Of a DNA stretch of 36,863 bases, positions 3,860 through 19,733 are shown piece by piece (position 1 is the stretch's first letter; each line of letters opens with the position of its first letter). Source of the DNA: Gemmatimonadales bacterium (GTDB taxonomy: Bacteria; Gemmatimonadota; Gemmatimonadetes; Gemmatimonadales; GWC2-71-9); assembly GCA_013694695.1 (NCBI GenBank), contig JACDBX010000028.1, positions 1 to 36,863 of the forward strand, read 5' to 3'. Under the pieces are notes generated by a model. The model did not search any database and was not told where the DNA came from. It was given only the letters and a program-made list of their open reading frames with translations. The position numbers and the translations under genes were made by a program.

Positions 3860-4834
3860 TCAGCGCGCGTACCCGATCCCGTCGGGCACCTGCCCCGTCG
3901 CCATCCACCGCGCCACAGTCCCGGTGCGCAGGTCGATCTCGGCGACCTCCGCACTCGCCGACATCGTGACCCATGCGCGATCGCCGGCCGGGGCAACCAC
4001 GATCCCGAATGGCCTGCGCTTCCCTCCCTGTGACGAGCTGAGGTCCACGCGCGTGCGAATGGCTCTGGTCGTGGCCTCGATCAGCCAGATCTCGTCGCTC
4101 TCGGGGTTCGTGACGATCGCGAGTGCCGCGTCCGGCGTGAACGCGATCCGGTATGGAAAGCCCGACGTCTGCACCGAATCGATCACCTGGCGTGAGTTCA
4201 AGTCCACCACGAAAACCAGACCGGTGTTGTTGCTGCCCAGCCATACGGTCCGTCCATCGGGAGCCGCGGCAATGGCCTCGGTCTGGGTACCGACCTTGAT
4301 CACGACCGGATCGCTCCCGCCCGCGAGGTCGATGATCGACAGCGTACCGGGCTGGATATTGGCGGTGTAGGCCGTCTTCGCATCGGGTGAGAGCGCGACC
4401 ATGTGCCCGAGCGGCTGGCCGACCGCGTGCTCGGCGGTCACGGCACCGGTGACGGCGTCGATCAGCACGATCGCCCCGCCCCGCTCGGCAGTCACGACAA
4501 CCGTGCGGTTGTCCGGGAGAAAGGCAATTCCATGAGGACGCTGGTGATCGCCAAACGGATGGGTGGCGAGAACGCGGCGAGTGCCGACGTCGATAACCGT
4601 CAGAGTGCGGCCGGCCAGCTGGGCCCCATAGTCGGTTACCACCGCCAGCTTCCCGTCCGCCGAGACAGCGACCTCGTGCGGGCCATCGCCCGTCGGGAGA
4701 ACCGCCACCGTCTTGCCATCGGCCAGCGAGATGATCGACGCCGTGGCGTCCTGCTTGTTGGTGATGACGAGCGACTGCGCCGCGATCGTGCCGGAGGGCA
4801 CGATGAGCGCAGCGGCGAGAACCAATCGAACCAT
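3860..4834 (-). CDS. Secreted YVTN/NHL-type beta-propeller protein
   Basis: A 324-residue protein with a Sec signal peptide (residues 1-19, ending TIAAQ). It contains about seven repeats of roughly 43 residues in the pattern hydrophobic strand, sxDG/PDxx, hydrophobic strand, NxxxxxxxxID. Examples are VAVSADGKLAVVTDYG, VALSPDAKTAYTANI and AAAPDGRTVWLGSNN. This is the YVTN beta-propeller class, which often binds ligands or proteins in the periplasm or at the surface. It is the last gene of the Ynj-type cluster, 56 bp after the esterase, a gap large enough for its own start signal. No catalytic residues are visible. A ligand-binding or scaffolding role in the uptake system is inference. Confidence 0.82.
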   Translation of the reverse strand: MVRLVLAAALIVPSGTIAAQSLVITNKQDATASIISLADGKTVAVLPTGDGPHEVAVSADGKLAVVTDYGAQLAGRTLTVIDVGTRRVLATHPFGDHQRPHGIAFLPDNRTVVVTAERGGAIVLIDAVTGAVTAEHAVGQPLGHMVALSPDAKTAYTANIQPGTLSIIDLAGGSDPVVIKVGTQTEAIAAAPDGRTVWLGSNNTGLVFVVDLNSRQVIDSVQTSGFPYRIAFTPDAALAIVTNPESDEIWLIEATTRAIRTRVDLSSSQGGKRRPFGIVVAPAGDRAWVTMSASAEVAEIDLRTGTVARWMATGQVPDGIGYAR

Positions 4835-4890
4835 GGAACCTTCCGGACTGGAGACGGCGGTCCCTACGCGCACTGGCCCGACTGGGATTC

Positions 4891-5721
4891 TTACTGGCCG
4901 GCTGGGGAGCCCGGCGGCACGGGAAAGAGCCACCTCACGGCGCGCAGCGCTGCCGGGTGGAAGATCGTCGCATGGCCTTCGGTGGGCATCGCGTCGAGGC
5001 GCCACCGCACCCGGGGCCCAGCTCCTGCCCCGAGACTGTCCGCAAACTCCCGGGCCAGGGTCGCAATGCCGGGCTCCCCGCTGTGGGCGATGTACAGCGT
5101 CGCGATCGATCCCGGACGCGTACGCATCACCCTCCCTGATTCGGCGACGAACCCGTTGTCGTTCCACCAGAGGCTCGGGTCGACTGCGATGTAGGTGCTG
5201 AACGCCGACGGCTCCAGCAGGAACGTCTCCACCACGAATAGTCCGGCGAGTGATTCACCGATGATCGCCCGCTCGCCGGTCGCGGGCACGCGCCGTTCGA
5301 TCTCGGGAATCAATTCGGTGCGCAGGAAGGCGCGGAACGCCGCTGATTCACCAACCCGTGGCGCAATCGCGCTGTCGCGCGCGCTCGCCGTCGGACCGGT
5401 GAGGTCCCGCCGCCGCTGGGTGTTTTCGATGCCAACGACGATGAACGGGCGCATTGTGCCATTGCCGACCGATACCTGCACCAGCCCGGCGATGTGCAGA
5501 AAATCCTCTGCGATGCCGCCGTCGAGGAGGTACAGCACCGGAAGCCGCGTCCCCGGCGGCGCGCCCGGTGGCGTGTAGACATTGATCCGTCGGAGCTCGC
5601 CGAGCACCGCAGACTGCACAGTGAATGTTGAACCGATCGCGAGGGGCTCCTGTGCCAACGCCCGATCGGGGGAGGCAGCCCCCATCATGAGTCCGGCGAG
5701 CACAGCATGCAGCGGGCGCAC
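4891..5721 (-). CDS. Secreted alpha/beta-hydrolase, IroE/enterochelin-esterase-like
   Basis: A 276-residue putative esterase. The GTG at 5721 was chosen because GAGG lies 5 nt upstream and it opens a signal peptide (through DRALAQ, about residue 24). Landmarks: strand PVLYLLDGG (61-69), nucleophile elbow IIGESLAG with Ser157, the family block DPSLWWNDNG (181-190) and a C-terminal EGHATIFHPA with His250 or His255. These match the trilactone-esterase-like group (IroE, Fes-related) but also other acyl esterases. It starts 7 bp after the anti-sigma gene, in an operon with a TonB receptor. A role in cleaving an imported or surface-bound ester ligand is plausible inference. It could equally be a general periplasmic esterase. 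Confidence 0.82.
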   Translation of the reverse strand: MRPLHAVLAGLMMGAASPDRALAQEPLAIGSTFTVQSAVLGELRRINVYTPPGAPPGTRLPVLYLLDGGIAEDFLHIAGLVQVSVGNGTMRPFIVVGIENTQRRRDLTGPTASARDSAIAPRVGESAAFRAFLRTELIPEIERRVPATGERAIIGESLAGLFVVETFLLEPSAFSTYIAVDPSLWWNDNGFVAESGRVMRTRPGSIATLYIAHSGEPGIATLAREFADSLGAGAGPRVRWRLDAMPTEGHATIFHPAALRAVRWLFPVPPGSPAGQ

Positions 5722-5728
5722 GGTCACC

Positions 5729-5971
5729 TCATGAAATGTGGGGAAATCCGAGATCGATAATGCGTTGCTCCAGTATCCTGAGCTGCTCCGCGTCAGCATC
5801 AGCTGCGTGCCCGCGACGCAACGCGTCGCCGAGCGCCCGGAGCTCGCGGGCGTAGCGGCGGCAGTCACGACACAGGAGCAGGTGAACGCGCAGCATCATG
5901 CCCGACATCGGCTCCCCGCCGCCTTGAGTCGCGCTCGCGACGCGCCGCGCCACGTCCCTACACGTCAGCAT
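5729..5971 (-). CDS. Small zinc-type anti-sigma factor
   Basis: An 80-residue soluble protein with HLLLCRDC (His30, Cys34, Cys37), the HxxxCxxC zinc site of ZAS anti-sigma factors. Cys4 may be another ligand or redox partner. There is no membrane segment, so it would act in the cytoplasm, perhaps responding to redox or metal like RsrA/ChrR. Its ATG lies inside the end of the ECF sigma gene (14-nt overlap), a translational coupling typical of a cognate sigma/anti-sigma pair. The C-terminal half is helical and charged. The pairing is strongly supported by position; the signal it senses is unknown. Confidence 0.8.
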   Translation of the reverse strand: MLTCRDVARRVASATQGGGEPMSGMMLRVHLLLCRDCRRYARELRALGDALRRGHAADADAEQLRILEQRIIDLGFPHIS

Positions 5972-6620
5972 CGTGCCGCCCGCTGATGCCGCGCGCCTCG
6001 AGGCATTCCCGCAGTCCGTTGCGAGCCCGGAAGAGCAGCACCCCAAGATTACCCGGGGTGACATCGAGCACCCGACAGATCTCGTCGGTGGTGAGGTCAT
6101 CGATTTCAGCGAGCACGAACGCGTGGCGACGGCGCTCGGTGAGGCCGGCAAGGCATTGGCCGATCCATGCGCGGACCCGTTGGGCATCGGCGCGGGCGTC
6201 GGGAGCGCGCGGCCCGCGGCCCCAGCGACCGATCGCGGTGAACCGGGACTCGACCACCTGGTCGATCGCATCAGTCTCATCGTCCCGGTCCGCAGTGCGC
6301 CGAAGCGACGCCGCCTTCTTGCGCATGATCCCGTACAGCCATGTCCGCACCCGTGACCGCCCATCGAAGTCGGCGGCCCTCGCGATGAAGGTGAGCATCG
6401 TCTCCTGGACGACGTCCTCCGCAAAATCCGCCGACATCCCCCACGACCGGCAGACCCGCAGCAGCATGCCGATATGCTCGCGCACAAGCTGCTGCAGCAC
6501 CAAGGGATCCCGGGCGCGAATCCTGGCGGTGAGCAGCGGGTCCTCGCGCATCATGCGATCAGGGGTCACGCCATGAAAGTTAATGCTCGGGACGATCCGG
6601 GCTTCGACTACCCCGGTCAC
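5958..6620 (-). CDS. ECF-type RNA polymerase sigma factor
   Basis: About 220 residues. Region 2 is visible as FAEDVVQETMLTFIARAADF followed by SRVRTWLYGIMRKKA. Region 4 is LTERRRHAFVLAEIDDLTTD followed by EICRVLDVTPGNLGVLLFRA, with its helix-turn-helix. No region 1 or 3 is present, so it belongs to the ECF group. The GTG at 6620 overlaps the ynjF stop as GTGA with AGGA 8 nt before it. An ATG at 6554 would also give a full region 2 and is a real alternative. The downstream zinc anti-sigma gene overlaps it by 14 nt. It probably directs transcription of this cluster and perhaps of itself; no matching promoter pair was found by eye. Confidence 0.88.
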   Translation of the reverse strand: MTGVVEARIVPSINFHGVTPDRMMREDPLLTARIRARDPLVLQQLVREHIGMLLRVCRSWGMSADFAEDVVQETMLTFIARAADFDGRSRVRTWLYGIMRKKAASLRRTADRDDETDAIDQVVESRFTAIGRWGRGPRAPDARADAQRVRAWIGQCLAGLTERRRHAFVLAEIDDLTTDEICRVLDVTPGNLGVLLFRARNGLRECLEARGISGRHDADV

Positions 6621-7222
6621 AGCTCCCGTCCTGCCCACGCGAGCCGCTGAATCGTGGTGACCGCTACCAGCGCCGACATCACCCCAAGCGTGACTGCGGT
6701 GGCGCCCGGGACCGCAATCGCGACCGCGAACAGCACCACCGTTTCGGTGCCTCCTACGAGTCCGGCCGGCATGGTGACCTGCGTCACCTCGCCGGTGGAT
6801 GCCGCGCCGCGGCCCCTCCGCTCCAGCACCGCGGCGAGATACATCCAGCTCGCCGCATTGACGTAGAACGTGCCAAGCAGCACGCCCACGGTGAGTGCGA
6901 GGTCCGGTCGCGCCAACGCAAGGGCCAACGGGATCGCCGCGTAGACAACGAAGTCACAGATGATGTCGAGATAACCGCCGAAGTCGGTCGACTGCCCGGT
7001 CTCCCGTGCCATGCTGCCATCGAGACCGTCGAGGAAACGATTCATCAGCCACATCACGAGCGCCGTGCCCGTTGCGCCGCGCGACAGCGCGAGTGCGGCA
7101 CCGAGTCCGACCAGTAGCCCGGCCATGGACACAGCTCCCGGTCCGACGTGCCGGCCAACGCGGCGGGCGAAAGGCGCGAGCAGCCGGTCCTTCCATCCCC
7201 GAAGCCAGTGGTCAAGCATCAT
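6617..7222 (-). CDS. ynjF: CDP-alcohol phosphatidyltransferase, YnjF-like
   Basis: A 201-residue polytopic inner-membrane protein. It has the complete CDP-alcohol phosphotransferase signature DGLDGSMAR...GGYLDIICD (about residues 65-90), including all four aspartates that bind the metal and CDP. The N-terminal MLDHWLR and the later GGTETVVLFAV match E. coli YnjF as recalled from memory (206 residues). YnjF is likewise encoded beside ynjBCD. The substrate alcohol is unknown; phosphatidylglycerophosphate-like products are usual for the family. It overlaps the ynjD-type gene by 11 nt (a second ATG at 7219 is equally possible) and the sigma gene by 4 nt, so it belongs to the same transcript. Confidence 0.88.
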   Translation of the reverse strand: MMLDHWLRGWKDRLLAPFARRVGRHVGPGAVSMAGLLVGLGAALALSRGATGTALVMWLMNRFLDGLDGSMARETGQSTDFGGYLDIICDFVVYAAIPLALALARPDLALTVGVLLGTFYVNAASWMYLAAVLERRGRGAASTGEVTQVTMPAGLVGGTETVVLFAVAIAVPGATAVTLGVMSALVAVTTIQRLAWAGREL

Positions 7223-8249
7223 CAGTTCCGGGCACGAAATGAATTACGGAGGGATCGATCACGAGCCCGACCGTCGCCCCCCGACTCGGCACGGGCCGCG
7301 GCGCGAGGGCCTCGAGGGTCACCGACCCGCACTGCACGATGATGCTCGGATGTCGAAGGTGTCGGTGCAGCTCCACGACCTCGCCGAACACCCCCGCCTG
7401 TTCGTCGCCGGTAGCCACCGTGACCGCATCAACCGCGAACACTGCCACCACCGGTCCGTGCGGCACGGCACCACCGACCGGCAGTCGCCCCATGGAAGAG
7501 CAGAACGCCCCGTCTTCCACCCGACCCGTGATCCGGTTCGGGATGCCAAGGAAGGCCGCGATCGCGACCGTGGCCGGTGCACGGAACAGTTCTTCCGCCG
7601 GAGCCACCTGCGCAATCCTGCCACCCAGCAGGACCGCCACGCGGTCCGCGAGCAGCACCGCATCATCCAGGTCATGGGTCGCGATCAGCATGCCGGTGCC
7701 ATCGAGGTGCGTCCGAGTCAGGACCTGCCTGACATCCTGTCGCAACCCGGGATCGAGTGAGGCCAGTGGCTCGTCGAGCAGCAGCATTTGCGGGTTCGCC
7801 GCGATCGCGCGGGCCAGTGCAACCCGGTGTCGCTGGCCTCCGCTCAGCGCCCCCGGCCTGCGGCCAGCAAGCTCCGACACCTGCACCGACGCGAGGAGTT
7901 CGGAGACGCGGCGCGAGATGTCATCCCGGTCGATGCCACGCAACCGCATCGGGAACGCAACATTGGCGGCGACATCAAGGTGCGGAAAGAGCATTGGGGT
8001 CTGGTGGAGATATACCGCCCCTCGCGATTCCGGCGGATCGTTCGTCACGTCGCGCCCCCCAACCACCACGCTGCCGTTCACCACGGGTTCGAGTCCCGCG
8101 ATCGCCCGAAGCAGCGTTGTCTTCCCGGCACCCGACGGCGCGAGCAACACGACGCGCTCTCCCCTCGCGACCGCGAGCGTCACGTCGGTCAGCCCGGCCA
8201 CGCTGCCGAAGTTGACCGCCATGGAGTCGAGTCGAAGGGCGACGGTCAT
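7212..8249 (-). CDS. ynjD: ABC importer ATPase, YnjD-like with C-terminal TOBE-like extension
   Basis: A 345-residue nucleotide-binding subunit. Walker A is APSGAGKTT (37-45), the signature LSGGQRHRVALARA begins at 135, Walker B is MLLLDEP (around 155-161) and the switch histidine is His192 in ATHDLDDA. Residues after about 260 (LGIPNRITGRVEDG... to the end) form a TOBE-like regulatory domain as in PotA/FbpC/CysA. E. coli YnjD is only about 217 residues, so this protein is longer. The ATG at 8249 overlaps the upstream permease stop as ATGA. It would power the import pathway formed with the two permeases and the YnjB-type lipoprotein. By sequence alone it could serve iron, thiamine or polyamine import. 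Confidence 0.9.
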   Translation of the reverse strand: MTVALRLDSMAVNFGSVAGLTDVTLAVARGERVVLLAPSGAGKTTLLRAIAGLEPVVNGSVVVGGRDVTNDPPESRGAVYLHQTPMLFPHLDVAANVAFPMRLRGIDRDDISRRVSELLASVQVSELAGRRPGALSGGQRHRVALARAIAANPQMLLLDEPLASLDPGLRQDVRQVLTRTHLDGTGMLIATHDLDDAVLLADRVAVLLGGRIAQVAPAEELFRAPATVAIAAFLGIPNRITGRVEDGAFCSSMGRLPVGGAVPHGPVVAVFAVDAVTVATGDEQAGVFGEVVELHRHLRHPSIIVQCGSVTLEALAPRPVPSRGATVGLVIDPSVIHFVPGTDDA

Positions 8250-9043
8250 GGCAGTACCAGCTCCACATTCCTGAGTGCCAATCGCATCAGCCCGAACGCT
8301 GCAAGGGGCGGGATCACGAGGAGCAGCGATCCTGTCGCCGCAAGCTGGTCCTGTCCGGCAACCAGATAGTCGATCACTTCGAGCGGCAGGGTGCGAACGC
8401 TTCCCCCGCCTGCGACGAGCGTCAGCGCCACCTGTCCCCATGACACGATGGCCCCCAGCAAAAGTGCCTCGAGCAGTTCGCGGTGCATCATCGGGATGGT
8501 CACTCGGCGCAGGACGTCAAACCTGCCAGCTCCCAGCGTCCTGGCTGCATCCTCGTGGCCTCCCTCGCGCACCGTGAAGATTCCGAGGAAATAGAGCGTG
8601 GTGTACCCGCATGCCGGAACAACGTGTGCGACGAAAACACCAACGATCGAACTCCCCAGCCCAGCGCCCAGTAGCGTGGCATGCAGCCCGGTTGCCAAGG
8701 CCACTGGCGGTGCTGCCACCGGCAGGAACGCCGCGCCGGCACCGATCACTCGCCGCCACCCGGTCGCAGCAGCGATCGCCGACCCGGCGAAGGCGCCGAA
8801 CACCATTGCGGCAAGCCCGGTGGCCAGCGCCAGCGCGGCACTGGCCAGTAGTGCCGGTCCGAGGAGGGCACCAGTGCCCACGACGTTGCGCCAGCTCGCG
8901 AGGCTGAACGTTCCCGGCAGCAATGCAGGAAAGAACCAGTCACTGCCGATGGATGCGAGGCCCAGGATCGCGAGCGGCATTGCCGCCGAAAGGAGCAGGA
9001 GCGGCAGGAGTCCGCGCCGTAGCATCGCCGGCACCGACGTCAT
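8246..9043 (-). CDS. ynjC: ABC importer permease, C-terminal half of a split YnjC
   Basis: 265 residues with about six hydrophobic helices. The EAA loop is EDAARTLGAGRFDVLRRVTIPMM, which docks onto the ATPase. It overlaps the preceding permease and the following ATPase gene by 4 nt each (ATGA). E. coli YnjC is a single protein of about 510 residues with two permease halves. Here the halves are separate genes in the same order, so this one corresponds to the second half. It sits in the inner membrane with the other permease. The substrate cannot be read from the sequence. Confidence 0.87.
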   Translation of the reverse strand: MTSVPAMLRRGLLPLLLLSAAMPLAILGLASIGSDWFFPALLPGTFSLASWRNVVGTGALLGPALLASAALALATGLAAMVFGAFAGSAIAAATGWRRVIGAGAAFLPVAAPPVALATGLHATLLGAGLGSSIVGVFVAHVVPACGYTTLYFLGIFTVREGGHEDAARTLGAGRFDVLRRVTIPMMHRELLEALLLGAIVSWGQVALTLVAGGGSVRTLPLEVIDYLVAGQDQLAATGSLLLVIPPLAAFGLMRLALRNVELVLP

Positions 9044-9882
9044 GTGGCGCGTCGATCCCGGGCGCGTGCCGCCTCGTGTAGTGCCACCGCACCGATGCCG
9101 ACGACCAGCCCGATCAGCACCAGCACGTGTGCTTCACCCCGTTTCGCGACACCGACATCGGTGTAGCGCTCCATCGTAAGCAGCGGCAGCGCCAGCGGGT
9201 CGCTTGGCGCGAGCAGCACCGTCGCCTCGTACGTGCCGGCGACGAATGCGAACACCGCGACGACGGCGGGCATCAGGCCGCGCCACAGCACCGGCCACGT
9301 GACCGCCCAGAAGACAGCCCGCCCGCGGGCACCCAGGGTTCGTGCCGCTTCCTCGAGCGCTCGGCCCCGATCAGCCAGGAGCGAGAATGCGATCAGTGCA
9401 AGAAAGGGAAACTCCTTCCACGCGAGTACCACGATCAGCCCGATTCCCCATTGGTCGTAAATGAGTGCGGGCATCGCAGCGGGTTGGTCGATCCAACCGG
9501 CCATGAATGCCCCGCGCGCGAGCAGCCCGCTCTGTCCGAGTACCAGCACGCCGAGTACCCCGGCCGCAAGATGGGAAAGAGGTAACGGCATCACCGCCAG
9601 CAATCGCGCCACCCCGCTGGAGCGGGTGCCCGGACGAAACAGCGCTGCCACCACCACTGCCGCCATCGTGGCCAGCGCGGTCGCCGCCGAGGCGACCCAG
9701 AGCGACCATCCGAGCCCCCGGAGGAGCTGGGGATCGTCGAACGCCGATGCCCATGACGCGGTGGAAAATCCCGTTGACCCCGGGCCCAGCAGTCCCACGC
9801 TTGCAAGCGCGCTGTATGCAATCCCGATCAGCACCGGAGTCGCCACCAGGAATGCAGCCAGTCCGGCGCCGCGTCGTATCAT
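9040..9882 (-). CDS. ynjC: ABC importer permease, N-terminal half of a split YnjC
   Basis: 280 residues with roughly six transmembrane helices. The EAA loop is EEAARTLGARGRAVFWAVTWPVL, giving the coupling helix to the ATPase. The start ATG overlaps the substrate-binding lipoprotein stop as ATGA, and its own stop overlaps the second permease. It is similar in design to its neighbour but not closely alike in sequence, so the pair should form a heterodimeric channel. Order and sizes match the two halves of the long YnjC protein of enterobacteria. Confidence 0.87.
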   Translation of the reverse strand: MIRRGAGLAAFLVATPVLIGIAYSALASVGLLGPGSTGFSTASWASAFDDPQLLRGLGWSLWVASAATALATMAAVVVAALFRPGTRSSGVARLLAVMPLPLSHLAAGVLGVLVLGQSGLLARGAFMAGWIDQPAAMPALIYDQWGIGLIVVLAWKEFPFLALIAFSLLADRGRALEEAARTLGARGRAVFWAVTWPVLWRGLMPAVVAVFAFVAGTYEATVLLAPSDPLALPLLTMERYTDVGVAKRGEAHVLVLIGLVVGIGAVALHEAARARDRRAT

Positions 9883-11114
9883 CGTGGCGTGTTGGCGCGG
9901 ATCGTCCGGCGCCAGTCGTCGGTCAGGCGTTCATGATATTCAGGATCGACTTCGGGGCGTGCGTACCGCCGGAGCGAATCAGGCGAGAGTGCGTGCGGGT
10001 CTCTTGCTTGCGCCGCAAAGCGACCACGCCAGGGCTCAGGGAGCCGCGAAACATCCAGGACCGAACCGTCAGCCCACACCTCGGGGCGCAGCTTCTCGAG
10101 TTGCGCCTCGGGTGAGAGCAGGAAATCGGCAACCACCATCGCACCCGCCGGATTCCGGGCGTTCACGGGGATACCGAGGTAGTGCGCGTTCGCCAGCATC
10201 CCGTCCCTGAGGAGGAGGGGCCGTGCGGTCGCCGGCAGGATGCCCTGGCGCACCTTCGAGATCACCTCGTTCTCGTTGTTCGACATCGAGAAATCGATCT
10301 CCCCGTTCGCGAAGAGCCGGTGCAGCTCCGCCACGCCGGCGGGATAGGTGGCGCCGAGCCGCCAGAAACCCGCGCGATGCCGAGTGACCCAACCGAGGAC
10401 CGAGTCGCGTCCTGCCGCGTACGCAGTGGAATCGAATCCGCCCTGGAAGCGCTCGACACCACCACCGAGCGCGTACATCAGGATCTTCAGGAACGTCATC
10501 CCGCTGAACGACTGGTCGTGAGTGAACCGCCCCGGATGCGCGTCGATCCATGCGCCAAGCTCGGCGACGCTCCGTGGTGGGTCGGGAACGCGCGCACTGT
10601 CGTAGATCAGCGCGTACTCGACCTGCCCCCACGGAGATTCGTAGCCACCGGGGTCCTGCTCGAAATCTCGGGCAATGATCACGGACGCGGTGTCGATGTA
10701 CCGCGCGTTGGGAAGCCGGTCCGCCCACGGCCCGAGCAGCAAATCCTCACGCCTCAGGCTGGCGAACGTGGCGCCATTGATCCATAGCAGGTCGCTGCTG
10801 CCCCGAGCGCCAGCCTCCCGTTCGGTGACGAGCAGGTTCACCATTCCCGGTCCCTGCCCCGGGACGACCTCGAGCGTTATCCCGAATCGTTCAAGGAGCC
10901 GCGGCGCCACCCATTGGTCGATGAAGGCGTTGATCGACGGATCGCCGCGCCACATCCTCCATGTCACCGTGGATCCGCGCGCCTGCGCCAGCACACTGTC
11001 CCACGGCTGCGCGGCGATCGCGCGGGACGTCGGCTCCGGCGCGACACGGTCGCACGCCATGACCAGGGCACCGCAGAGCAGTGCCGGCAACTGCAACCAC
11101 CGCCAGCCCCGCAT
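9879..11114 (-). CDS. ynjB: YnjB-like substrate-binding lipoprotein of ABC importer
   Basis: 411 residues. The ATG at 11114 opens a lipoprotein signal ending LVMAC, with the lipid-bearing cysteine near residue 22. An ATG at 11132 would add six residues and overlap the receptor gene. The mature part has the landmarks of the YnjB family (COG4134): VTWRMWRGDPSINAFIDQWV, DLLWINGATFASL, LGPWADRLPNARYID, GYESPWGQVEYALIYD and HPGRFTHD. It should capture the ligand in the periplasm and hand it to the two permeases. KEGG lists Ynj as a putative thiamine system, but the ligand has not been settled to my knowledge. It lies 7 bp after the TonB receptor stop, linking outer- and inner-membrane steps. Confidence 0.9.
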   Translation of the reverse strand: MRGWRWLQLPALLCGALVMACDRVAPEPTSRAIAAQPWDSVLAQARGSTVTWRMWRGDPSINAFIDQWVAPRLLERFGITLEVVPGQGPGMVNLLVTEREAGARGSSDLLWINGATFASLRREDLLLGPWADRLPNARYIDTASVIIARDFEQDPGGYESPWGQVEYALIYDSARVPDPPRSVAELGAWIDAHPGRFTHDQSFSGMTFLKILMYALGGGVERFQGGFDSTAYAAGRDSVLGWVTRHRAGFWRLGATYPAGVAELHRLFANGEIDFSMSNNENEVISKVRQGILPATARPLLLRDGMLANAHYLGIPVNARNPAGAMVVADFLLSPEAQLEKLRPEVWADGSVLDVSRLPEPWRGRFAAQARDPHALSPDSLRRYARPEVDPEYHERLTDDWRRTIRANTPR

Positions 11115-11121
11115 TCCCGCG

Positions 11122-14022
11122 TCAGAAGACATAGCGCGCCGACAACTGCACCTGCCGTGGCCTGCCCGGCGAACGCAACACGATCGGGTCGCCCGGGCGT
11201 CCGGCCTGGGTCCGGCTACCGCCGCCGGGCACGCCATTGGCATAGTTGCCCCACTCGGTCGCGTTGAGGACGTTGAACACATCGGCCCGCAGCTCGAGAA
11301 GACTGGCGCCCACCCCCATCAGGTATGTCGCGCCGGCACTGAACTCAAGAAAGTTGGGCAGGCGCTCGTCATTCCGTCCGACCCCGACGAACCGATCGAG
11401 GTTGCCGACGAACCCCTCACCGAATATCGGACCCGATCCATCGAGGTCGAACGTGCTGAACGATCCATCGGGGTTAGTCCGGCCTGCGACGCGGTTCACC
11501 GGCTGCCCGGTCTGCCAGTCGCCGATCGCAGCCAGACGCAGCGAGCTCCCCACCGTGTACACGGCACGAAGCGTCACCTTGTGTCGCCGGTCGTTGATGG
11601 CGTCGGCCCATTCACTCGTGCTGCATGGTACGCCGGTGATTGCGTCGCGGAAGTCTTCGCCGAAGCAGTTCGCCTGGGTCGCGTTGAAGTTGATGTCTTC
11701 GGTGTCGTTCTGCGCCCGCAACCAGGCCCAGTTGCCATCCAGTGACCACGCCTCGCCGAATTGCCGGCGGACTGTGGTCACGAGTGCCTGGTACCGTCCT
11801 CGGCCAGCCGACTGCGTGGTCGTCAGGCGGCGGAACGACCCGGTTGCGGGCGCCACGGGCCGCGAGCCGTCACCGAACGTCACGCCGCGCGCCACGCTGT
11901 CTGCAACGCCGAGCGGGCGGGCGATGGCATTGAGGTCGACCGATCGCGGAAGTCTGCGCGTTTCAACCCAGGTGGCGTCGACTGTCACCGCCCAACGCGC
12001 GCCGACCTGCGCCTGGAACCCCACTGATGCCTGATAGCTCAGCGGCTGCGAAAGGCCGAGCGCAAACAGTGCGCGTTCCTCGTGCGCGGGAAGTTCGCCA
12101 CGCCGGGCCTGCAATGCCTCGCGCGTGAGCCCCTGCCCGAATGCGGGCGCACTCGCGCCCTGGAAGCTCACGACCGCATTGCCATCGGGTCCGAACTGAA
12201 CCGCATCGGAATAGATCGCGTACGGAAGCTTGCCGGTGTAGATGCCGGCCCCGGCGCGGATCACGGTCGTGGGCGTGCGGTACCAGTTCACCGCGAGGCG
12301 GGGCTGGAAGTTGTCGAGATCGGGTGAGCTGGCTCCCCGGCTGGTGATGTCGTCGTAATCCCAGCGGATCCCGGCCACCACCGCGAGCGAAGGAGTGACG
12401 CGCCATTGATCCTCGACGTACGCCCCCAGGAGTGTCTGGGTGAGGTCGACCTGCTGCTGGTTGGCATCGATCGTATAGCGCTGGACACGGACATCGGCCG
12501 GGATGTCGTCGATCGAGAGGAACTCACCGCTGGCCCGGATGTTACCATCGTTGAACACCGTGTATGAACCATTGGGGTTGGTGCTTGCACCCGACAACTG
12601 GAACCAGCTTCGCGTTGCCTCGGCACCGACCCGGATCGTGTGCCCGCCACCAATCACCGACTCGAACACGTTGCGCAACTCGAACTGGCGTTCGGTCTCG
12701 TCGAACACGAAGTTGCTCGAGCCGACGATCGCCTGTACGCTGGAGTCGGGCGCAACGATGGTGACCTGCGGACGAGTGAAGTCGCTGCGAGTGGGCGGGA
12801 AGTACCAGCGGAAGGTGCCGAACTGTGCCGAGATGGTGTTGCTGGCCTGGCCGCCCCGCAGCGCCGTCCTATGAGTGAGCGCGGTCAGGCTGCCGATCCG
12901 CCGGGTGGTGATGTCGGCCTCGGGAACGACAAGACCACTCCCCGCCCCCGCGCGATCGGTGTTGCTGTAGGCCACGCGCAGCGTCGTCGTCTGCGTCGGG
13001 GACCATCCATGGTCGATTCGTCCAAGGCCCCGAACCTTCTGGCGCCGCTCCACCCCCGTGAACTGGGTCTGCGCAGTCGATCCGATGCGAGCTTCGTCCT
13101 CCGACGAGTACTCCAGCGCGACTGACGCGAAGGTCCTCCCACGGGCGATGGGACCGGCGGCGCTCGCTCCCAACTGGACCCGCTGGAAGCCCTCCGGATC
13201 GACGCCCGAGGGAAGCTGCTTCGGCGCCGCGTCGAATGAGATCCCGAGTGGCCCATCCCTTCCCGGCCGCGACATTGCGAACACATCCCCGCTCCATGAC
13301 GCTCCTCCCGCGCGGGTTTCCTGGTTGACCACTCCGTATGCGCTCGGGCCGTGGGTCACCCCGTACGTGGACGTGAGCACCTCGAGACGACGGAGCCCGC
13401 TCAGTGGCAGCTCGACCCGCGGGCCACCCAGGAAGCCTTCGGTGTTGTTGAGTCCGTCAACGAAGTACTGCGAATAGAGGCTGTTGCCGCCTGCGATCGA
13501 GAGCGGCGGCGCGTCGCCGAAGAATCCCGTCGCCTGTGCAACACCGGGCAGGTTGAACGCGAGACTGAGCGCATCGCGAGCGTCGGACGGAAGCGCCTGC
13601 AGTTCATGTTCCTCGAGCGCGCCACCGAGCGCGGCATTCTCGGTGTTGAGCAATGGGCGGGTGCGACCGGCCACCACGGTCACCGCGTCGAGGACGAAGA
13701 GTGGGCGCATGGTCACTCCGACCTCGCGACTCGCGCCGCTTGCGATCGCCCCGATCGAGATGTCCAACGGCGTGTAGCCAACCGCGCGCACCATGAGCAC
13801 GACCGGCATGCGTGCCACCACCGCAACACGGAACCTCCCCTGGAGGTCGGTGGTGGTGCCATCGCCAGCGCCAGAGGTCACTCGCGCGTCGTGCAGCGGG
13901 GCGCCTGCCTGGCTTCTCACGACGCCCGACACCACCGCTGTCGCCTGCGCGATCGCGCTTGCAGAGGGGAAGGCCGCACCGGCGATCACTGCCACCATCC
14001 ATTTCGACACCGTCCACCGCAT
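11122..14022 (-). CDS. TonB-dependent outer-membrane receptor with carboxypeptidase-regulatory-like N-domain
   Basis: 966 residues. The ATG at 14022 has GGGGAG 6 nt upstream and begins a Sec signal peptide (1-26, ending SAIAQA). Residues about 30-115 form a carboxypeptidase-regulatory-like beta-sandwich (VVSGVVRSQAGAPLHDARV, TTTDLQGRFRV). A plug region follows (about 125-235, with SIAGGNSLYSQYFVDG and LRRLEVLT). The remainder is a beta-barrel ending in the aromatic SARYVF typical of outer-membrane proteins. No cysteine-rich or TonB-box sequence stands out. It probably imports a bulky ligand using TonB energy. As first gene of the YnjB-C-D-F and sigma/anti-sigma cluster, it is the likely outer gate of that system. 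Related receptors transport siderophores, cobalamin, glycans or peptides. Confidence 0.92.
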   Translation of the reverse strand: MRWTVSKWMVAVIAGAAFPSASAIAQATAVVSGVVRSQAGAPLHDARVTSGAGDGTTTDLQGRFRVAVVARMPVVLMVRAVGYTPLDISIGAIASGASREVGVTMRPLFVLDAVTVVAGRTRPLLNTENAALGGALEEHELQALPSDARDALSLAFNLPGVAQATGFFGDAPPLSIAGGNSLYSQYFVDGLNNTEGFLGGPRVELPLSGLRRLEVLTSTYGVTHGPSAYGVVNQETRAGGASWSGDVFAMSRPGRDGPLGISFDAAPKQLPSGVDPEGFQRVQLGASAAGPIARGRTFASVALEYSSEDEARIGSTAQTQFTGVERRQKVRGLGRIDHGWSPTQTTTLRVAYSNTDRAGAGSGLVVPEADITTRRIGSLTALTHRTALRGGQASNTISAQFGTFRWYFPPTRSDFTRPQVTIVAPDSSVQAIVGSSNFVFDETERQFELRNVFESVIGGGHTIRVGAEATRSWFQLSGASTNPNGSYTVFNDGNIRASGEFLSIDDIPADVRVQRYTIDANQQQVDLTQTLLGAYVEDQWRVTPSLAVVAGIRWDYDDITSRGASSPDLDNFQPRLAVNWYRTPTTVIRAGAGIYTGKLPYAIYSDAVQFGPDGNAVVSFQGASAPAFGQGLTREALQARRGELPAHEERALFALGLSQPLSYQASVGFQAQVGARWAVTVDATWVETRRLPRSVDLNAIARPLGVADSVARGVTFGDGSRPVAPATGSFRRLTTTQSAGRGRYQALVTTVRRQFGEAWSLDGNWAWLRAQNDTEDINFNATQANCFGEDFRDAITGVPCSTSEWADAINDRRHKVTLRAVYTVGSSLRLAAIGDWQTGQPVNRVAGRTNPDGSFSTFDLDGSGPIFGEGFVGNLDRFVGVGRNDERLPNFLEFSAGATYLMGVGASLLELRADVFNVLNATEWGNYANGVPGGGSRTQAGRPGDPIVLRSPGRPRQVQLSARYVF

Positions 14023-14069: not shown

Positions 14070-15536
14070 TCATCGCGTGATACGAAACCACAGCCCGAGT
14101 ACCCACCGCACAAACGGCGTGAGCTTTCGACGTCGCCACTGATCCGCCGCCTTCCGATAGGCTTCGGCGAGCGTCGGGTACGGATGGATCGTCCCGCCGA
14201 TCCCCCCAAGGTCCACGCCGTTGGTGATTGCCAATGTCGCCTCCGCAATGAGGTCGCCGGCGTGCGCCCCCACGACGGTGGCCCCGACCAGTCGCGCCGT
14301 ACCGCTCGCGAGGTGCAGCCTGACGAAACCGTCGGTCGTTCCATCGAGCACCGCGCGGTCGACCTCGTCCCACTGCACCGTGACGGTGTCAATGGCGACG
14401 CCCTCCCGCTCCGCAGCGGCGGCGGTGAGGCCCACCTGCGCGACCTCGGGATCGGTGTAGGTGCACCATGGGATGACCAGTGAGCTCGCTCGCTGCCGCC
14501 CCGGGAAGAGCGCGTTGGCCACCACGATACGCGCCTGGAAATCGGCGACATGCGTGAACTGATGACGGGACGCCACGTCGCCTGCGGCGAAGACCCGGCG
14601 ATTGGTCGTGCGAAGGTGATCGTCGACCTTCACCCCATCCTTGTCGACCTCAATCCCGGCGCGCTCGAGTCCCAGACCCTCGACATTGGGCGCCCTGCCC
14701 GCGGCGACGAGGAGTGCGTCACCGTGCGCGGTGCCGGAGTTACCGTCACGATGGAAGCTGGCACTGACGCCGTTGCCGCCGGACACGCGGTCGATCGTCA
14801 CCCCGAGTTCGAGCGTGACACCATCGCGGCGTAGTGCCGCAGCAAGCAGTTCCGCTCCGTCCGGATCATCATGGGTGATAAGGCGCGGTTCGCGATCGAG
14901 GATCGTGACGGTGCTGCCCAGCCGTGCCATCGCCTGCGCCAGTTCGCAGCCGATCGGGCCGCCCCCGATTACCAGCAACCGCGCCGGAGCTTCGGTGAGG
15001 TTGAAAATGGTTTCGTTGGTGAGGTGCGGGACCTGATCGAGCCCGGGAATGGGCGGTGCTGCGGGCCGCGCGCCCGTTGCGATCACTGCCCGGCGGAAGC
15101 GCAGCGACTGTCCGGCAACGGTGATTCGGTCCGGTCCGTCGAACGCCGCCGTGCCAAGGAAGACGTCGACGCCAAGATCACGAAATCGGGAGGCGGAATC
15201 GATCGAACTGAGGTCTGCGCGAATGCGCCTCATCCGCGACATCACTGCACCAAAGTTGCGCTCACCTGATCGAGCTCCGGCGAGCAGTGCCTTCGATGGC
15301 ACGCACCCCACGTTGAGACAATCCCCACCCATCAGGTGCTTCTCGATCAGCGCGACCCGCGCGCCCAGGCCGGCAGCCGCTGCAGCGGTGACCAGTCCCG
15401 CCGTGCCGGCGCCGATCACGACCAGGTGATAACGATCATCGGGAACCGGGTTCACCCAGTCAGCGGGATGCACGTTGGCGATCCGCCTGGCATCGTGCTC
15501 GTCGATGATCGTCACGGGAGTTGACTGATGTGTCAT
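14070..15536 (-). CDS. FAD-dependent pyridine-nucleotide disulfide oxidoreductase, mercuric-reductase-like
   Basis: 488 residues. The FAD-binding fold is VVIGAGTAGLV (39-49), the redox pair GGDCLNVGCVPSKAL has Cys73 and Cys78, the NAD(P) site is GGGPIGCELAQAMARLG, and AAGDVA binds FAD. The C-terminal HPYPTLAEAY supplies the catalytic His451. It lacks the N-terminal heavy-metal domain and the terminal Cys-Cys pair of true MerA, so mercury reduction is unlikely. A basic, aromatic tail follows (RRRKLTPFVRWVLGLWFRITR without its last residue is the core). About 36 residues precede the FAD fold. It overlaps the TVP38-like gene as ATGA; the two domains are fused in other bacteria. The electron acceptor is unknown. 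Confidence 0.9.
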   Translation of the reverse strand: MTHQSTPVTIIDEHDARRIANVHPADWVNPVPDDRYHLVVIGAGTAGLVTAAAAAGLGARVALIEKHLMGGDCLNVGCVPSKALLAGARSGERNFGAVMSRMRRIRADLSSIDSASRFRDLGVDVFLGTAAFDGPDRITVAGQSLRFRRAVIATGARPAAPPIPGLDQVPHLTNETIFNLTEAPARLLVIGGGPIGCELAQAMARLGSTVTILDREPRLITHDDPDGAELLAAALRRDGVTLELGVTIDRVSGGNGVSASFHRDGNSGTAHGDALLVAAGRAPNVEGLGLERAGIEVDKDGVKVDDHLRTTNRRVFAAGDVASRHQFTHVADFQARIVVANALFPGRQRASSLVIPWCTYTDPEVAQVGLTAAAAEREGVAIDTVTVQWDEVDRAVLDGTTDGFVRLHLASGTARLVGATVVGAHAGDLIAEATLAITNGVDLGGIGGTIHPYPTLAEAYRKAADQWRRRKLTPFVRWVLGLWFRITR

Positions 15537-16249
15537 GTGACAAGCTCCCCGGCGGACGCGGTTAGGGCACGCTTGGCGATTCGCGTGATGATCACGGTCA
15601 CGACGACCGTTGCGACAAACCCGACCGCAAGCAGTGCGTAATACGCCGGTCCCCGCGCCGGCGCGCCGCCCGCCGCAAGTTCGCTCAGGTCGCCGACCAC
15701 CTTCCCGGCATAGGTATACGCGATGGTTCCGGGAATCATGCCGAGCGACGCGACCACGAAATCGACCAGCCGGATGCTCGTAAGACCAAGCAGGTAGTTC
15801 AGCAACGTGTAGGGGAAGACGGGAGAGAGCCGAATGAGGAAGACCACCTTCCGGCCATCGGCGCCCAGCGCGGCGTCGAGCGCCCGGAATCGGGACGAGT
15901 TGGCGAAGCGGCGCTCCAGGGGCGCGCGGGCAAGGTAACGGGCGACGAGAAATGCCGCCGTCGCGCCGAGCACTGCCCCGACGAACACATAGATCGAGCC
16001 AGCGACCACACCGAAGACTGCGCCGGCAGCCAGGGTCAGGAGCGACCCGGGGACCATGAGGATCGCAGCCACCACGTAGGCGAGCACAAAGACCGCCGGC
16101 CCCAATGGCCCAAGACTCTCGATGCGTGCAATCACGCCCGGTACGAACGCCGCGAGCTGTCGCCCACCCAGCAGAAGAGCCGCAATCACCGCGATCGCCA
16201 CGATGCCAATCACCCACCGGCGTGTGGCGGACTGATCCCCACGTTTCAT
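15533..16249 (-). CDS. TVP38/TMEM64 (SNARE-associated/DedA-type) membrane protein
   Basis: A 238-residue polytopic membrane protein. It has an N-terminal helix (about 15-35), a helical core with VPGSLLTLAAGAVFGVVAGS and the conserved re-entrant motif VFLIRLSPVFPYTLLNYLLGLTS, split here around FPY. The family pattern F-x-x-R-x-x-P-x-x-P is matched by FLIRLSPVFP. VTT-domain proteins are lipid scramblases or transporters. The ATG at 16249 has GAGG 6 nt upstream. It is cotranslated with the FAD oxidoreductase (4-nt overlap). It follows the tRNA-Gln terminator; only a weak promoter-like pair (TTATTC, 16 bp, TAATGA at 16354-16327) lies between. It may be the true first gene of the long downstream run. 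Confidence 0.87.
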   Translation of the reverse strand: MKRGDQSATRRWVIGIVAIAVIAALLLGGRQLAAFVPGVIARIESLGPLGPAVFVLAYVVAAILMVPGSLLTLAAGAVFGVVAGSIYVFVGAVLGATAAFLVARYLARAPLERRFANSSRFRALDAALGADGRKVVFLIRLSPVFPYTLLNYLLGLTSIRLVDFVVASLGMIPGTIAYTYAGKVVGDLSELAAGGAPARGPAYYALLAVGFVATVVVTVIITRIAKRALTASAGELVT

Positions 16250-16352
16250 GAACCCTCGGATCTGATCAGGCCTGCGAGCACGACGGACCGTGCCCGTCCA
16301 TGAGATGATTGCGCTGACCGCCGGAATCATTACACCCGCATGGAGATCGAAT

Positions 16353-16385: not shown

Positions 16386-16402
16386 TCGGTGTGTCGCCTG
16401 AT

Positions 16403-16474
16403 TGCCCCTCTAGGGCTCGAACCTAGACTCTCCTCATCCAGAGTGAGGCGTGTTGCCAGTTACACCAAGGGGCA
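16403..16474 (-). tRNA. tRNA-Gln (anticodon CTG)
   Basis: 72 nt. The acceptor stem TGCCCCT/AGGGGCA, a D-arm with GGTGTAACTGGCA, the anticodon stem CCTCA/TGAGG around CTCTGGA (anticodon CTG, reading CAG) and the T-arm with GGTTCGAACC are all visible on the minus strand. The 3' CCA is not encoded and must be added after RNase Z processing. A promoter and a terminator flank the gene. Confidence 0.95.
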
Positions 16475-16495
16475 GCGGTGCTGTCGGGACCGGCC

Positions 16496-16524
16496 AACCT
16501 AGCCAAATCGGTGGCTCGGCGCAA
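16496..16524 (-). promoter_or_regulatory. Putative tRNA-Gln promoter
   Basis: Minus strand: TTGCGC (16524-16519), 17 bp, TAGGTT (16501-16496). The predicted start lies about 15 nt before the mature tRNA. The -35 hexamer is identical to that before cspA. Confidence 0.55.
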
Positions 16525-16537
16525 TTCGGGGGCCGGC

Positions 16538-18058
16538 TCAAGCGGCCGCGGTGAGGCCCGGTGAGGACATCGCTGGCAGCCCCGAAAATGTCGCCTGGAC
16601 AGCATCCACCGCGACCGGGCAGAGATGTCCGATGGCGACGAGCCGATCGAGGACCGCAAACGCCTCGTCCGTCGACATTCCCGCCCGGTATGGACGATCG
16701 GCCGACACCGCCTCGGTCACGTCGGCGGCTGCCAGCACCCGCGCCATCGGCCCGAGTTCGGCCTGCTTGAGGCCGAGGTGATAGCCGGTACCGTCGAGCC
16801 GTTCATGATGGGCGGCCGCGGTCGCCGCAAACTGGCGAAACCGCGAGACCCGCTTCAGGATCTCGAGCGTGAACCGGGTGTGCTGCCGCATCGATTCCAT
16901 TTCGGAGTCGTCGAGCGCGGACGGCTTGTCAAGGATGGTGTTTGAGACGCCGAGCTTTCCGATATCGTGAAGCAGCGCCGCCCGGTTCAGGGTCCGGATG
17001 TCCCCCGGTTCGAATCCCATCCTCTGGGCGGCTGCCACCGCAATCAATGCCACATTCTCCGAATGCTGCGCCGTGAACGGGCTCTTGGCGTCGATCACCC
17101 GCGCGAACGCCTGCGCCACGATGTCGAGGCGATCATCATCTGCATAAACCGTCATCTCGCCGGGCTCAAGCGCGCGCACCGCTGCCAGGTCGTCGGATTC
17201 GCGGAGGCGCGCCCAGAACTCCTGGTCATCCTGGAACACGTCGAGGCAGTCGACCAGCACCGGGTCGAACCACCGCCCACGGCGAGCGTGCGCCATCTCG
17301 TACGCGGTTCGCACGTCAAAGGCATTGACGAACACCTCGACGGTCTGGGCGAGCGACGCGATGCGGCCGACGATCGGGATGTTCGTGCCCCGAAGGCCCT
17401 GGGGCATGCCCGCGCCGTCCCAGTGTTCATCAAGGCCGCGAATCGCGTCCGACGCGCCGCGGGGCAACCCGATCATCTGCGCGATGTCGGCGCCGCGTTC
17501 GCAACGGGTCTGCGTGAGCGCGCGTCCGCTGCCCTTTTCCGTCACGCCCATCATGAGGGCATGCCACGCGCGGGCCAGGCGTGACCTGCCTGGCACCGAG
17601 TACCTGAAGGCGTACCGCGCGGCCTCGGTGGTGGCACTCCAGTCGGTGAGCCTGTGCGCGTGCTTGAGCAGGCGATCGTCGGCCCCGAACATCGTGGTCA
17701 GTCGCGCCGCGTTGCTCGAGCAACCAAGATCCTTGAGCAGGAGCCCGTAGAAGAGCCCGCTTCGCTGCTCGTCGGAAAGGCCAAGTGTGGTGGCGATGCG
17801 CATCCCGATCATTGTCGAGCGCGTCGCATGGCCCATGGGTTGGCCCTCGGTGATGTCAAGCGCGTGCGAAAGCGCCGCCACCACCTCGGAAAGCCGGACC
17901 GGATCTCCCGTCGTGACTGCAACGGGGTTTGTGGCGCCCGCGCGCCCGCCGTCTGTTCCACCATCCTGGCCGGAACGGGGGCGAACGGCGGGCGCCGGGG
18001 TGCTGCGGAAAGGGCTGGGCGGCGCCGACTGCTCGGTGATGCGAATGCGACGAGACAT
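16538..18058 (-). CDS. Double HD-GYP-type phosphohydrolase, copy 2
   Basis: 506 residues. The C-terminal domain (about 310-490) is HD-GYP-like: QHSENVALIA, LLHDIGKLGVSN (His364-Asp365), RQHTRFTLEIL and HHERLDGTGYHLGL (417-430), where the usual GYP is GYH. An N-terminal domain (about 55-290) repeats the plan in degenerate form: GHATRSTMIGMRIA, LLLKDLGCSS (Lys109-Asp110 instead of His-Asp), then LDEHWDGAGMPQGL. HD-GYP enzymes hydrolyse cyclic di-GMP; here only the second domain keeps the metal ligands, so the first is probably sensory. The first 50 residues are Pro/Arg-rich and probably disordered. No Shine-Dalgarno sequence is seen. It follows its paralogue by 18 bp. Confidence 0.88.
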   Translation of the reverse strand: MSRRIRITEQSAPPSPFRSTPAPAVRPRSGQDGGTDGGRAGATNPVAVTTGDPVRLSEVVAALSHALDITEGQPMGHATRSTMIGMRIATTLGLSDEQRSGLFYGLLLKDLGCSSNAARLTTMFGADDRLLKHAHRLTDWSATTEAARYAFRYSVPGRSRLARAWHALMMGVTEKGSGRALTQTRCERGADIAQMIGLPRGASDAIRGLDEHWDGAGMPQGLRGTNIPIVGRIASLAQTVEVFVNAFDVRTAYEMAHARRGRWFDPVLVDCLDVFQDDQEFWARLRESDDLAAVRALEPGEMTVYADDDRLDIVAQAFARVIDAKSPFTAQHSENVALIAVAAAQRMGFEPGDIRTLNRAALLHDIGKLGVSNTILDKPSALDDSEMESMRQHTRFTLEILKRVSRFRQFAATAAAHHERLDGTGYHLGLKQAELGPMARVLAAADVTEAVSADRPYRAGMSTDEAFAVLDRLVAIGHLCPVAVDAVQATFSGLPAMSSPGLTAAA

Positions 18059-18076
18059 GACTTTGGGGGAAGCCGT

Positions 18077-19606: not shown

Positions 19607-19622
19607 GGGCAGGACAGGGGGC

Positions 19623-19657
19623 AAAAACGATGCCCGCCACCGGGAGGGGTGACGGGC
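19623..19657 (-). terminator. Terminator downstream of tRNA-Ala
   Basis: Minus strand: GCCCGTCACC (19657-19648) pairs fully (one G-T) with GGTGGCGGGC (19641-19632) around a six-base loop, followed by ATCG and TTTTT (19627-19623). It lies 3 nt after the tRNA and directly before the first HD-GYP gene. Confidence 0.85.
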
Positions 19658-19660
19658 AAA

Positions 19661-19733
19661 TGGAGCTGAGGGGGATCGAACCCCTGACCTCACCGATGCG
19701 AACGGTGCGCTCTCCCAGCTGAGCTACAGCCCC
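19661..19733 (-). tRNA. tRNA-Ala (anticodon CGC)
   Basis: 73 nt. The acceptor stem begins GGGGCTG, the D-arm contains GCTCAGCTGGGAGAGC, the anticodon arm is CACCG-TTCGCAT-CGGTG (anticodon CGC, reading GCG), and the T-arm has GGTTCGATCC. The discriminator base is A. CCA is not encoded. The RNase Z gene needed to mature such tRNAs is the next gene upstream. Confidence 0.96.

What the first reader, a model, noticed from the sequence alone, without database searches (positions are those of the whole stretch)
3860..14022. Ynj-centred trans-envelope uptake cluster with its own sigma/anti-sigma pair and secreted esterase
Seen: ten minus-strand genes from TonB receptor to YVTN propeller, with stop/start overlaps or gaps of at most 7 bp through the first nine. 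Known: YnjB/C/D/F are neighbours in E. coli, where the ligand is unsettled. Not known to me: their coupling to a TonB receptor, an IroE-like exported esterase and an ECF/ZAS switch. Inference: the receptor brings in a ligand (perhaps ester-linked), the esterase processes it in the periplasm, YnjBCD imports it, YnjF links to the membrane, and the sigma pair senses it.
Basis: partly seen in the sequence, partly recalled or inferred. Interest (0 to 1): 0.78.

Follow-up and report, generated by a model that had tools for sequence, protein, structure and literature searches.

The report
TonB-coupled Ynj uptake and lipid module
This bacterium carries a conserved gene set that seems to bring an unidentified molecule through both membranes and pass it to a membrane-lipid enzyme and a redox enzyme, and in related bacteria one complete inner-membrane importer has been swapped for another, which gives a new way to find out what the long-unexplained Ynj transporter carries.

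Summary
The ten-gene observation is confirmed, but its boundaries are wrong. Two more genes upstream belong to the unit: a VTT/DedA-family membrane protein and a MerA-like FAD disulfide reductase. The TonB receptor-YnjB-permease-permease-YnjD linkage is real and conserved. Of 21 YnjB-bearing genomes among 395 Gemmatimonadota, 18 have this receptor orthogroup on the same contig beside ynjB, and two more support it across contig breaks. Plasmids of Alteromonadales carry the same set with a receptor that shows no BLAST similarity, so the coupling probably arose twice. The receptor orthogroup occurs in 38 genomes: 19 have YnjBCD, 17 have a sodium:solute symporter instead, none has both, and two are undecided. 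On the receptor tree this is one swap. CDP-alcohol phosphatidyltransferase, VTT protein and FAD reductase recur on both sides of the swap. The window's esterase, beta-propeller and own sigma/anti-sigma pair are not conserved at the locus; their relatives lie elsewhere. Other ECF/anti-sigma pairs, with RsrA-like (thiol-redox) anti-sigmas, do recur at the locus in two genera. Best reading: TonB-coupled import of an organic solute feeding phospholipid head-group chemistry, tied to thiol redox. Linkage is shown; ligand and reaction are inferred.

The parts
15533..16330 (-). VTT/DedA-family (TVP38/TMEM64-type) membrane protein
   Evidence: PF09335, 95.9 bits. Recurs at the locus in both importer types. 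Fused to the FAD reductase in annotated plasmid loci of Alteromonadales, Rhodobacterales and Klebsiella.
14070..15536 (-). MerA-like FAD/NAD(P) disulfide oxidoreductase
   Evidence: PF07992 and PF02852. Motif GGDCLNVGCVPSK, Tyr in the C-terminal YPT motif, no C-terminal Cys pair. Recurs at the locus in both importer types.
11122..14022 (-). TonB-dependent receptor (CarboxypepD_reg, plug, OMP_b-brl_4 barrel)
   Evidence: Orthogroup of 38/395 genomes, one copy each at the threshold used, 46-65% identity.
9879..11132 (-). YnjB substrate-binding protein
   Evidence: NF008633, 375.7 bits against cut-off 203. AlphaFold2 mean pLDDT 86; best fold matches are SBPs of the PotD/FbpA/FutA type.
9040..9882 (-). 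ABC permease 1
   Evidence: PF00528 just above its cut-off (27.3 against 26.4). Annotated YnjB loci of Klebsiella and Alteromonadales have one long permease gene in this place.
8246..9043 (-). ABC permease 2
   Evidence: PF00528, 37.6 bits. Same order in the other loci with context.
7212..8249 (-). YnjD ATPase, 345 aa
   Evidence: PF00005, 105.8 bits. Same order in the other loci with context.
6617..7222 (-). YnjF, CDP-alcohol phosphatidyltransferase
   Evidence: PF01066. Complete motif DGLDGSMARETGQSTDFGGYLDIICD. Nearest solved relatives include inositol-phosphate transferases.
5958..6554 (-). ECF sigma factor (start may be GTG 6620); same transcription unit possible, not conserved at the locus
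   Evidence: PF04542 and PF08281. Relatives of 46-52% lie elsewhere with their own anti-sigma.
5729..5971 (-). 80-aa anti-sigma, HxxxCxxC, no membrane segment; not conserved at the locus
   Evidence: NF052368, 40.5 bits, below its cut-off of 50. Hydropathy scan.
4891..5727 (-). exported PF00756 esterase, IroE-like; neighbour, not part of the conserved module
   Evidence: Relatives unlinked to the module.
3860..4834 (-). exported YVTN beta-propeller; neighbour, not part of the conserved module
   Evidence: TIGR02276 repeats. Absent from the other loci held.

Best explanation
Genes 16330-6617 are one functional module. SHOWN by conserved linkage: an outer-membrane TonB receptor, an inner-membrane importer (YnjBCD, or in a sister clade a sodium:solute symporter), a CDP-alcohol phosphatidyltransferase (YnjF), a VTT/DedA protein and a FAD disulfide reductase. 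INFERRED: the receptor brings a scarce or bulky organic molecule into the periplasm. It, or a part released from it (in other genomes perhaps by the exported DUF547 protein), is carried inward by YnjBCD. YnjF joins the imported alcohol to a CDP-activated lipid. The VTT protein, whose eukaryotic relatives are phospholipid scramblases, moves the product between leaflets. The FAD reductase, often fused to the VTT protein, keeps a thiol/disulfide or other redox-active part reduced. In some genera an RsrA-like anti-sigma may tie expression to thiol stress. The esterase, propeller and the window's own sigma pair are neighbours, not core parts.
For: Linkage: YnjB in 21/395 genomes; the receptor lies directly upstream on the same strand in 17 of 18 loci compared, divergent in the 18th, and receptor and YnjB distances correlate (Mantel r=0.67, 0/5000 permutations). 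Swap: receptor orthogroup in 38 genomes, symporter orthogroup in 17, all among the 38 and none with YnjB; one change on the receptor tree, SH-aLRT 99. Around symporter-type receptors a CDP-alcohol transferase is found wherever the downstream side is held, and VTT, FAD reductase and DUF547 in many with enough sequence. Second origin with a receptor of no BLAST similarity: TonB - VTT/FAD - DUF547 - YnjBCD - CDP-alcohol transferase - fatty acid hydroxylase. Transferase motif complete. Lipid-related neighbours: lysophospholipid acyltransferase, MlaD, fatty acid hydroxylase. Redox-related neighbours: MsrA/B, CMD, rhodanese, RsrA-like anti-sigma. COG0398 DedA proteins as putative phospholipid scramblases, most often fused to this reductase fold: PMC10127716.
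Against: No ligand evidence. Fold neighbours of YnjB include polyamine, iron, thiamine and sugar binders. No riboswitch at the loci searched. Several YnjB loci have no nearby TonB receptor (plasmid loci of Rhodobacterales, Bacillota, Enterobacteriaceae), so the receptor is not universal. The window's congener G336 has no ynjF, VTT or reductase in the stretch held, and G356 has receptor and YnjB without permeases beside them. The symporter matches SSF weakly (44-58 bits), so its substrate class is unsure. Nothing shows directly that YnjF uses the imported molecule, and lipid synthesis alone does not explain the redox enzyme.
Confidence: 0.42

Rival explanations
1. Metallophore or metal uptake with reductive release: the receptor and YnjBCD import a chelate, and the MerA-like flavoprotein reduces the metal (for example Cu or Fe) to free it; YnjF and VTT repair or adapt the membrane.
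For: The receptor of the Alteromonadales loci has a siderophore-receptor-like plug. YnjB folds near FbpA/FutA as well as PotD. The flavoprotein is closest to mercuric reductases and keeps their YPT-region tyrosine. A Klebsiella plasmid copy lies near a bufferin maturase, a family linked to copper (from my own knowledge).
Against: The importer can be replaced by a sodium:solute symporter, a family not known to carry chelates (my knowledge). No C-terminal Cys pair in the reductase. It does not explain the conserved phosphatidyltransferase.
Confidence: 0.2
2. A membrane-anchored thiol shuttle: the imported molecule is itself redox-active, YnjF anchors it as a lipid, the VTT protein moves it between leaflets and the fused disulfide reductase re-reduces it.
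For: VTT and disulfide reductase fused in several groups. MsrA, CMD and rhodanese neighbours. RsrA-like anti-sigma in two genera.
Against: No such lipid is known to me; nothing shows that the ligand carries a thiol.
Confidence: 0.13
3. One reading: the receptor imports an ester-linked (siderophore-like) ligand, the esterase cuts it in the periplasm, and the sigma pair senses it.
For: Gene order in this window; the esterase resembles IroE-type enzymes.
Against: Esterase, propeller and this sigma pair are absent from the other Ynj loci held, with relatives elsewhere. No STN domain reported on the receptor; anti-sigma has no membrane segment. Esterase scores 31.6 against the 222 cut-off for enterochelin esterase.
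Confidence: 0.04
4. Three neighbouring but separate functions (uptake, phospholipid synthesis, redox defence) kept together by co-regulation or shared transfer, with no common substrate.
For: Patchy distribution: 21 of 395 genomes, 2 of 10 in the genus. YnjBCD lacks VTT and reductase genes beside it in some annotated loci.
Against: Much the same core in Gemmatimonadota, Pseudomonadota, Bacillota, Fusobacteriota and a Synergistales MAG, and it survives replacement of the importer.
Confidence: 0.21

Closest known systems
E. coli ydjXYZ-ynjABCD operon with ynjE and ynjF (ydjXYZ-ynjABCD listed as FNR-activated, PMC3688515; ynjA-ynjD listed under the BaeR regulon, PMC2731931)
   Same: VTT/DedA proteins, YnjB, YnjC, YnjD and a CDP-alcohol transferase in one neighbourhood (Klebsiella copy annotated).
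   Different: No TonB receptor and no MerA-like reductase in that stretch; extra CMD and rhodanese; one long permease gene; shorter ATPase gene.
TonB-dependent receptor plus ABC importer systems (siderophore, heme, B12 type)
   Same: Receptor and ABC importer encoded together.
   Different: The ABC importer is of the YnjBCD (PF13416/PF00528) type, it can be swapped for a sodium symporter, and lipid and redox genes travel with it.
COG0398 DedA proteins fused to pyridine nucleotide-disulfide oxidoreductase (PMC10127716)
   Same: Same two domains, separate here, fused in other loci of this module.
   Different: The section read names the fusion but no uptake system; here it is tied to a receptor and importer.
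SigR/RsrA redox sigma system
   Same: Anti-sigmas at the locus in two genera match TIGR03988.
   Different: All score below the curated cut-off; the window's own pair is another type.

Membership tests
YnjBCD ABC importer | YnjB-family substrate-binding protein | tested here: met
   NF008633, 375.7 bits against cut-off 203
YnjBCD ABC importer | Two permease domains and an ATPase next to YnjB | tested here: met
   PF00528 twice, PF00005
TonB-dependent receptor | Plug and beta-barrel domains | tested here: met
   PF07715, PF00593, PF25183 over cut-off
CDP-alcohol phosphatidyltransferase | Catalytic motif DxxDGxxAR...GxxxDxxxD | tested here: met
VTT/DedA superfamily | PF09335 domain | tested here: met
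   95.9 bits
COG0398 DedA subfamily | Assignment to this subfamily rather than another DedA group | not tested
   No subfamily model was run; inferred from the TVP38/TMEM64 annotation of relatives
Mercuric reductase | C-terminal vicinal cysteine pair (from my own knowledge) | tested here: not met
   Tail ends ...LGLWFRITR, cysteines only at 73, 78, 197, 358
FAD disulfide reductase | CxxxxC redox motif with FAD and dimerisation domains | tested here: met
Enterobactin/IroE-type siderophore esterase | Score over the curated enterochelin esterase cut-off | tested here: not met
   31.6 against 222; PF00756 alone is met
Fec-type cell-surface signalling | Signalling (STN) domain on the receptor | tested here: not met
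   No such domain among the Pfam matches of the receptor at E 0.001
Fec-type cell-surface signalling | Membrane-spanning anti-sigma | tested here: not met
   80 aa, no hydrophobic segment
SigR/RsrA | Anti-sigma over the TIGR03988 cut-off of 62.5 | tested here: inconclusive
   41-50 bits for g97 and g16 anti-sigmas; window's anti-sigma not matched
Sodium:solute symporter (alternative importer in relatives) | PF00474 over cut-off | tested here: met
   44-58 bits against 22.8; transport and sodium dependence not testable here
Any ligand class for YnjB | Bound substrate | not testable with these tools
   Needs binding assays

The most novel reading that the evidence does not exclude
A membrane-anchored redox lipid cycle: the cell imports a redox-active alcohol through TonB and YnjBCD (or a sodium symporter), YnjF builds it into a phospholipid, the VTT protein moves that lipid between leaflets and the adjoining or fused disulfide reductase re-reduces it, giving reducing power to the periplasmic face under thiol stress.
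Probability: 0.1. Interest if true: 0.92.

Novelty: new variant of a known kind. Interest (0 to 1): 0.62.

Why it matters
The papers found here leave the YnjBCD ligand unassigned (one calls the system uncharacterised). The module links it to an outer-membrane receptor, to phospholipid synthesis and to a redox enzyme. The single, clade-wide replacement of the ABC importer by a sodium symporter, with the rest kept, is a natural experiment: whatever is imported should be something both transporter types can carry, which favours an organic solute over a metal chelate. That makes the ligand question testable.

Tried and rejected
Riboswitch clue to the ligand: none at the 15 sources searched. Solved relatives of YnjB and of the receptor by sequence: none. 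Fold search of YnjB: too broad to choose a ligand. Literature: no paper found joining TVP38 with TonB or DUF547; YnjBCD mentioned only in passing in those read. SigR-type promoter motif near the RsrA-like pairs: no excess over shuffled sequence. Clean insertion site in congeners: flanks downstream of the HD-domain gene are not alike, so no empty site could be shown. Sigma genes of this type are 16 per 2.8 Mb in this genome, so a lone sigma pair near a locus is weak evidence; only the repeated, mutually similar pairs in two genera were given weight. The DUF547 search of the own genome is uninformative because no control genome rang.
Full report
WHAT IS THERE. The window is one contig of a Gemmatimonadota genome (G000:C65; loci with close YnjB relatives are named Gemmatimonadales/Gemmatimonadaceae MAGs). 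Starts can be chosen so that gaps through the first nine are at most 7 bp, but the sigma start is open: GTG 6620 overlaps ynjF by 4 bp, while ATG 6554 leaves 62 bp. Two further genes upstream run in the same direction: a VTT/DedA protein (16330-15533) and a FAD disulfide reductase (15536-14070), which overlap by 4 bp; the reductase ends 47 bp before the receptor.

CONSERVED LINKAGE. YnjB (NF008633) was found in 21 of 395 Gemmatimonadota genomes. Wider sequence was fetched for 19 of them; genome-contig loci L023-L030 partly repeat the same contigs and were not counted again. At E 1e-80 the receptor is present in 19 of the 21. In 18 of these it lies on the YnjB contig beside ynjB (places). In the 18 loci compared in detail it is directly upstream on the same strand in 17 and divergent in L047. 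In G183 receptor and YnjB sit at the ends of two different contigs. Of the two YnjB genomes outside the 19, G256 shows only a receptor fragment at its contig edge beside ynjB and G303 shows none. Receptor and YnjB distances correlate across 18 loci (Mantel r=0.67, 0 of 5000 permutations as high; shared ancestry not removed).

WHAT IS NOT CONSERVED. No other Ynj locus held has the esterase, the propeller or the window's sigma/anti-sigma pair. Esterase relatives of 49-61% identity stand alone in seven loci examined. Sigma relatives of 46-52% occur in five genomes where no YnjB was listed; four are seen beside a similar small anti-sigma. In G190, of the window's own genus, the sigma relative lies about 2 kb from a VTT-reductase pair, a single suggestive case.

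A SECOND KIND OF IMPORTER. The receptor orthogroup is in 38 of 395 genomes. Around the receptors without YnjB lie a CDP-alcohol transferase, VTT, reductase and DUF547 genes and a PF00474 sodium:solute symporter. That symporter orthogroup is in 17 genomes, all among the 38 and none among the 21 with YnjB. So 19 receptor genomes have YnjBCD, 17 have the symporter, and two (G267, G269) have contigs cut inside the receptor. On the receptor tree the symporter-type rows are one side of a branch (SH-aLRT 99), nested among ABC-type rows under midpoint rooting, with the window, L048, L023 and L045 near them. The order in L128, DUF547-VTT-reductase-receptor-CDP-alcohol transferase-symporter, matches the window's VTT-reductase-receptor-YnjBCD-YnjF with the importer exchanged and placed behind the transferase. 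The two transferase types differ (30-37% to the window's).

OTHER PHYLA. Annotated plasmid records show the same companions of YnjB: Metabacillus (MsrA, MsrB, TVP38, FAD oxidoreductase, YnjBCD, CDP-alcohol transferase), Klebsiella (TVP38 twice, CMD, YnjBCD, rhodanese, CDP-alcohol transferase), a Klebsiella plasmid with fused TVP38/FAD oxidoreductase and a bufferin maturase nearby, Ilyobacter, Rhodobacterales, Deinococcus with a lysophospholipid acyltransferase. A Synergistales MAG has VTT, YnjBCD, YnjF and a reductase. Pseudoalteromonas and Catenovulum have TonB receptor, TVP38/FAD oxidoreductase, DUF547, YnjBCD, CDP-alcohol transferase and fatty acid hydroxylase. BLAST finds no similarity between that receptor and the window's, so the link to TonB probably arose twice.

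ENZYMES. The CDP-alcohol transferase motif is complete in the Gemmatimonadota, Alteromonadales and Synergistales proteins; most others keep the same residues with a spacer one residue shorter, and L060 has AQ for AR. Its nearest solved relatives include inositol-phosphate transferases, at weak scores. The reductase keeps CxxxxC and a tyrosine in the YPT motif, as in the mercuric reductases it aligns with, but lacks their C-terminal cysteine pair (the pair as a hallmark is from my own knowledge). YnjB was modelled (pLDDT 86); best fold matches are polyamine, iron, thiamine and sugar binders, so the fold does not name the ligand.

REGULATION. ECF sigma plus anti-sigma pairs sit at the locus in genus g97 (ABC type, between VTT and receptor) and in part of g16 (symporter type, behind the transferase). 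Those sigmas are 43-51% alike between the genera and their anti-sigmas match RsrA at 41-50 bits, under the 62.5 cut-off. The window's own sigma is another type (29-32% to those and to L048's). A SigR-like promoter motif is not enriched. Redox control is therefore a lead, not a result. The window receptor shows no STN domain and its anti-sigma no membrane segment, which argues against Fec-type signalling.

MECHANISM. Shown: a conserved set of receptor, exchangeable importer, CDP-alcohol transferase, VTT protein and disulfide reductase. Inferred: an organic solute is imported and used for lipid head-group chemistry, with a redox step; the VTT role rests on relatives described as phospholipid scramblases in PMC10127716. 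The symporter swap favours an organic solute over a metal chelate, but the symporter's SSF match is weak. I give the full chain 0.42 and the conserved module itself about 0.9.

NOVELTY. No paper found in the searched library joins these parts. The library lacks most subscription journals, so prior description elsewhere is possible.

Noticed in passing
L031:6127-9621: ynjF and the receptor gene form one open reading frame with no stop between them; in the related locus L035 the two are separate. May be a sequence error or a lost stop.
   Followed up: partly
L056 (Klebsiella pneumoniae IncR plasmid) and similar plasmids of E. coli, Salmonella, Citrobacter and Providencia: A plasmid-borne copy of the module (fused TVP38/FAD oxidoreductase, YnjBCD, CDP-alcohol transferase, sigma factor) lies near a bufferin maturase in L056; near-identical YnjB hits occur on plasmids of several enterobacteria, a number of them from milk, veal or cattle.
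   Followed up: partly
L028/L034 (G356): Receptor and YnjB side by side with no permease or ATPase gene found next to them.
   Followed up: partly
L099 (G190), 4690-12131: In a genome of the window's genus without YnjB, a SigR-like sigma, a relative of the window's sigma, a CMD gene, a reductase fragment and an intact VTT-reductase pair lie within about 8 kb.
   Followed up: partly
window 16402-19733: Two paralogous HD-domain genes (57% identical) lie between tRNA-Gln (16402-16474) and tRNA-Ala (19661-19733), next to the module.
   Followed up: no
L041:3675-4279 and L036:18497-19101: Arrays of five tRNA genes near the Ynj locus in two related genomes.
   Followed up: no
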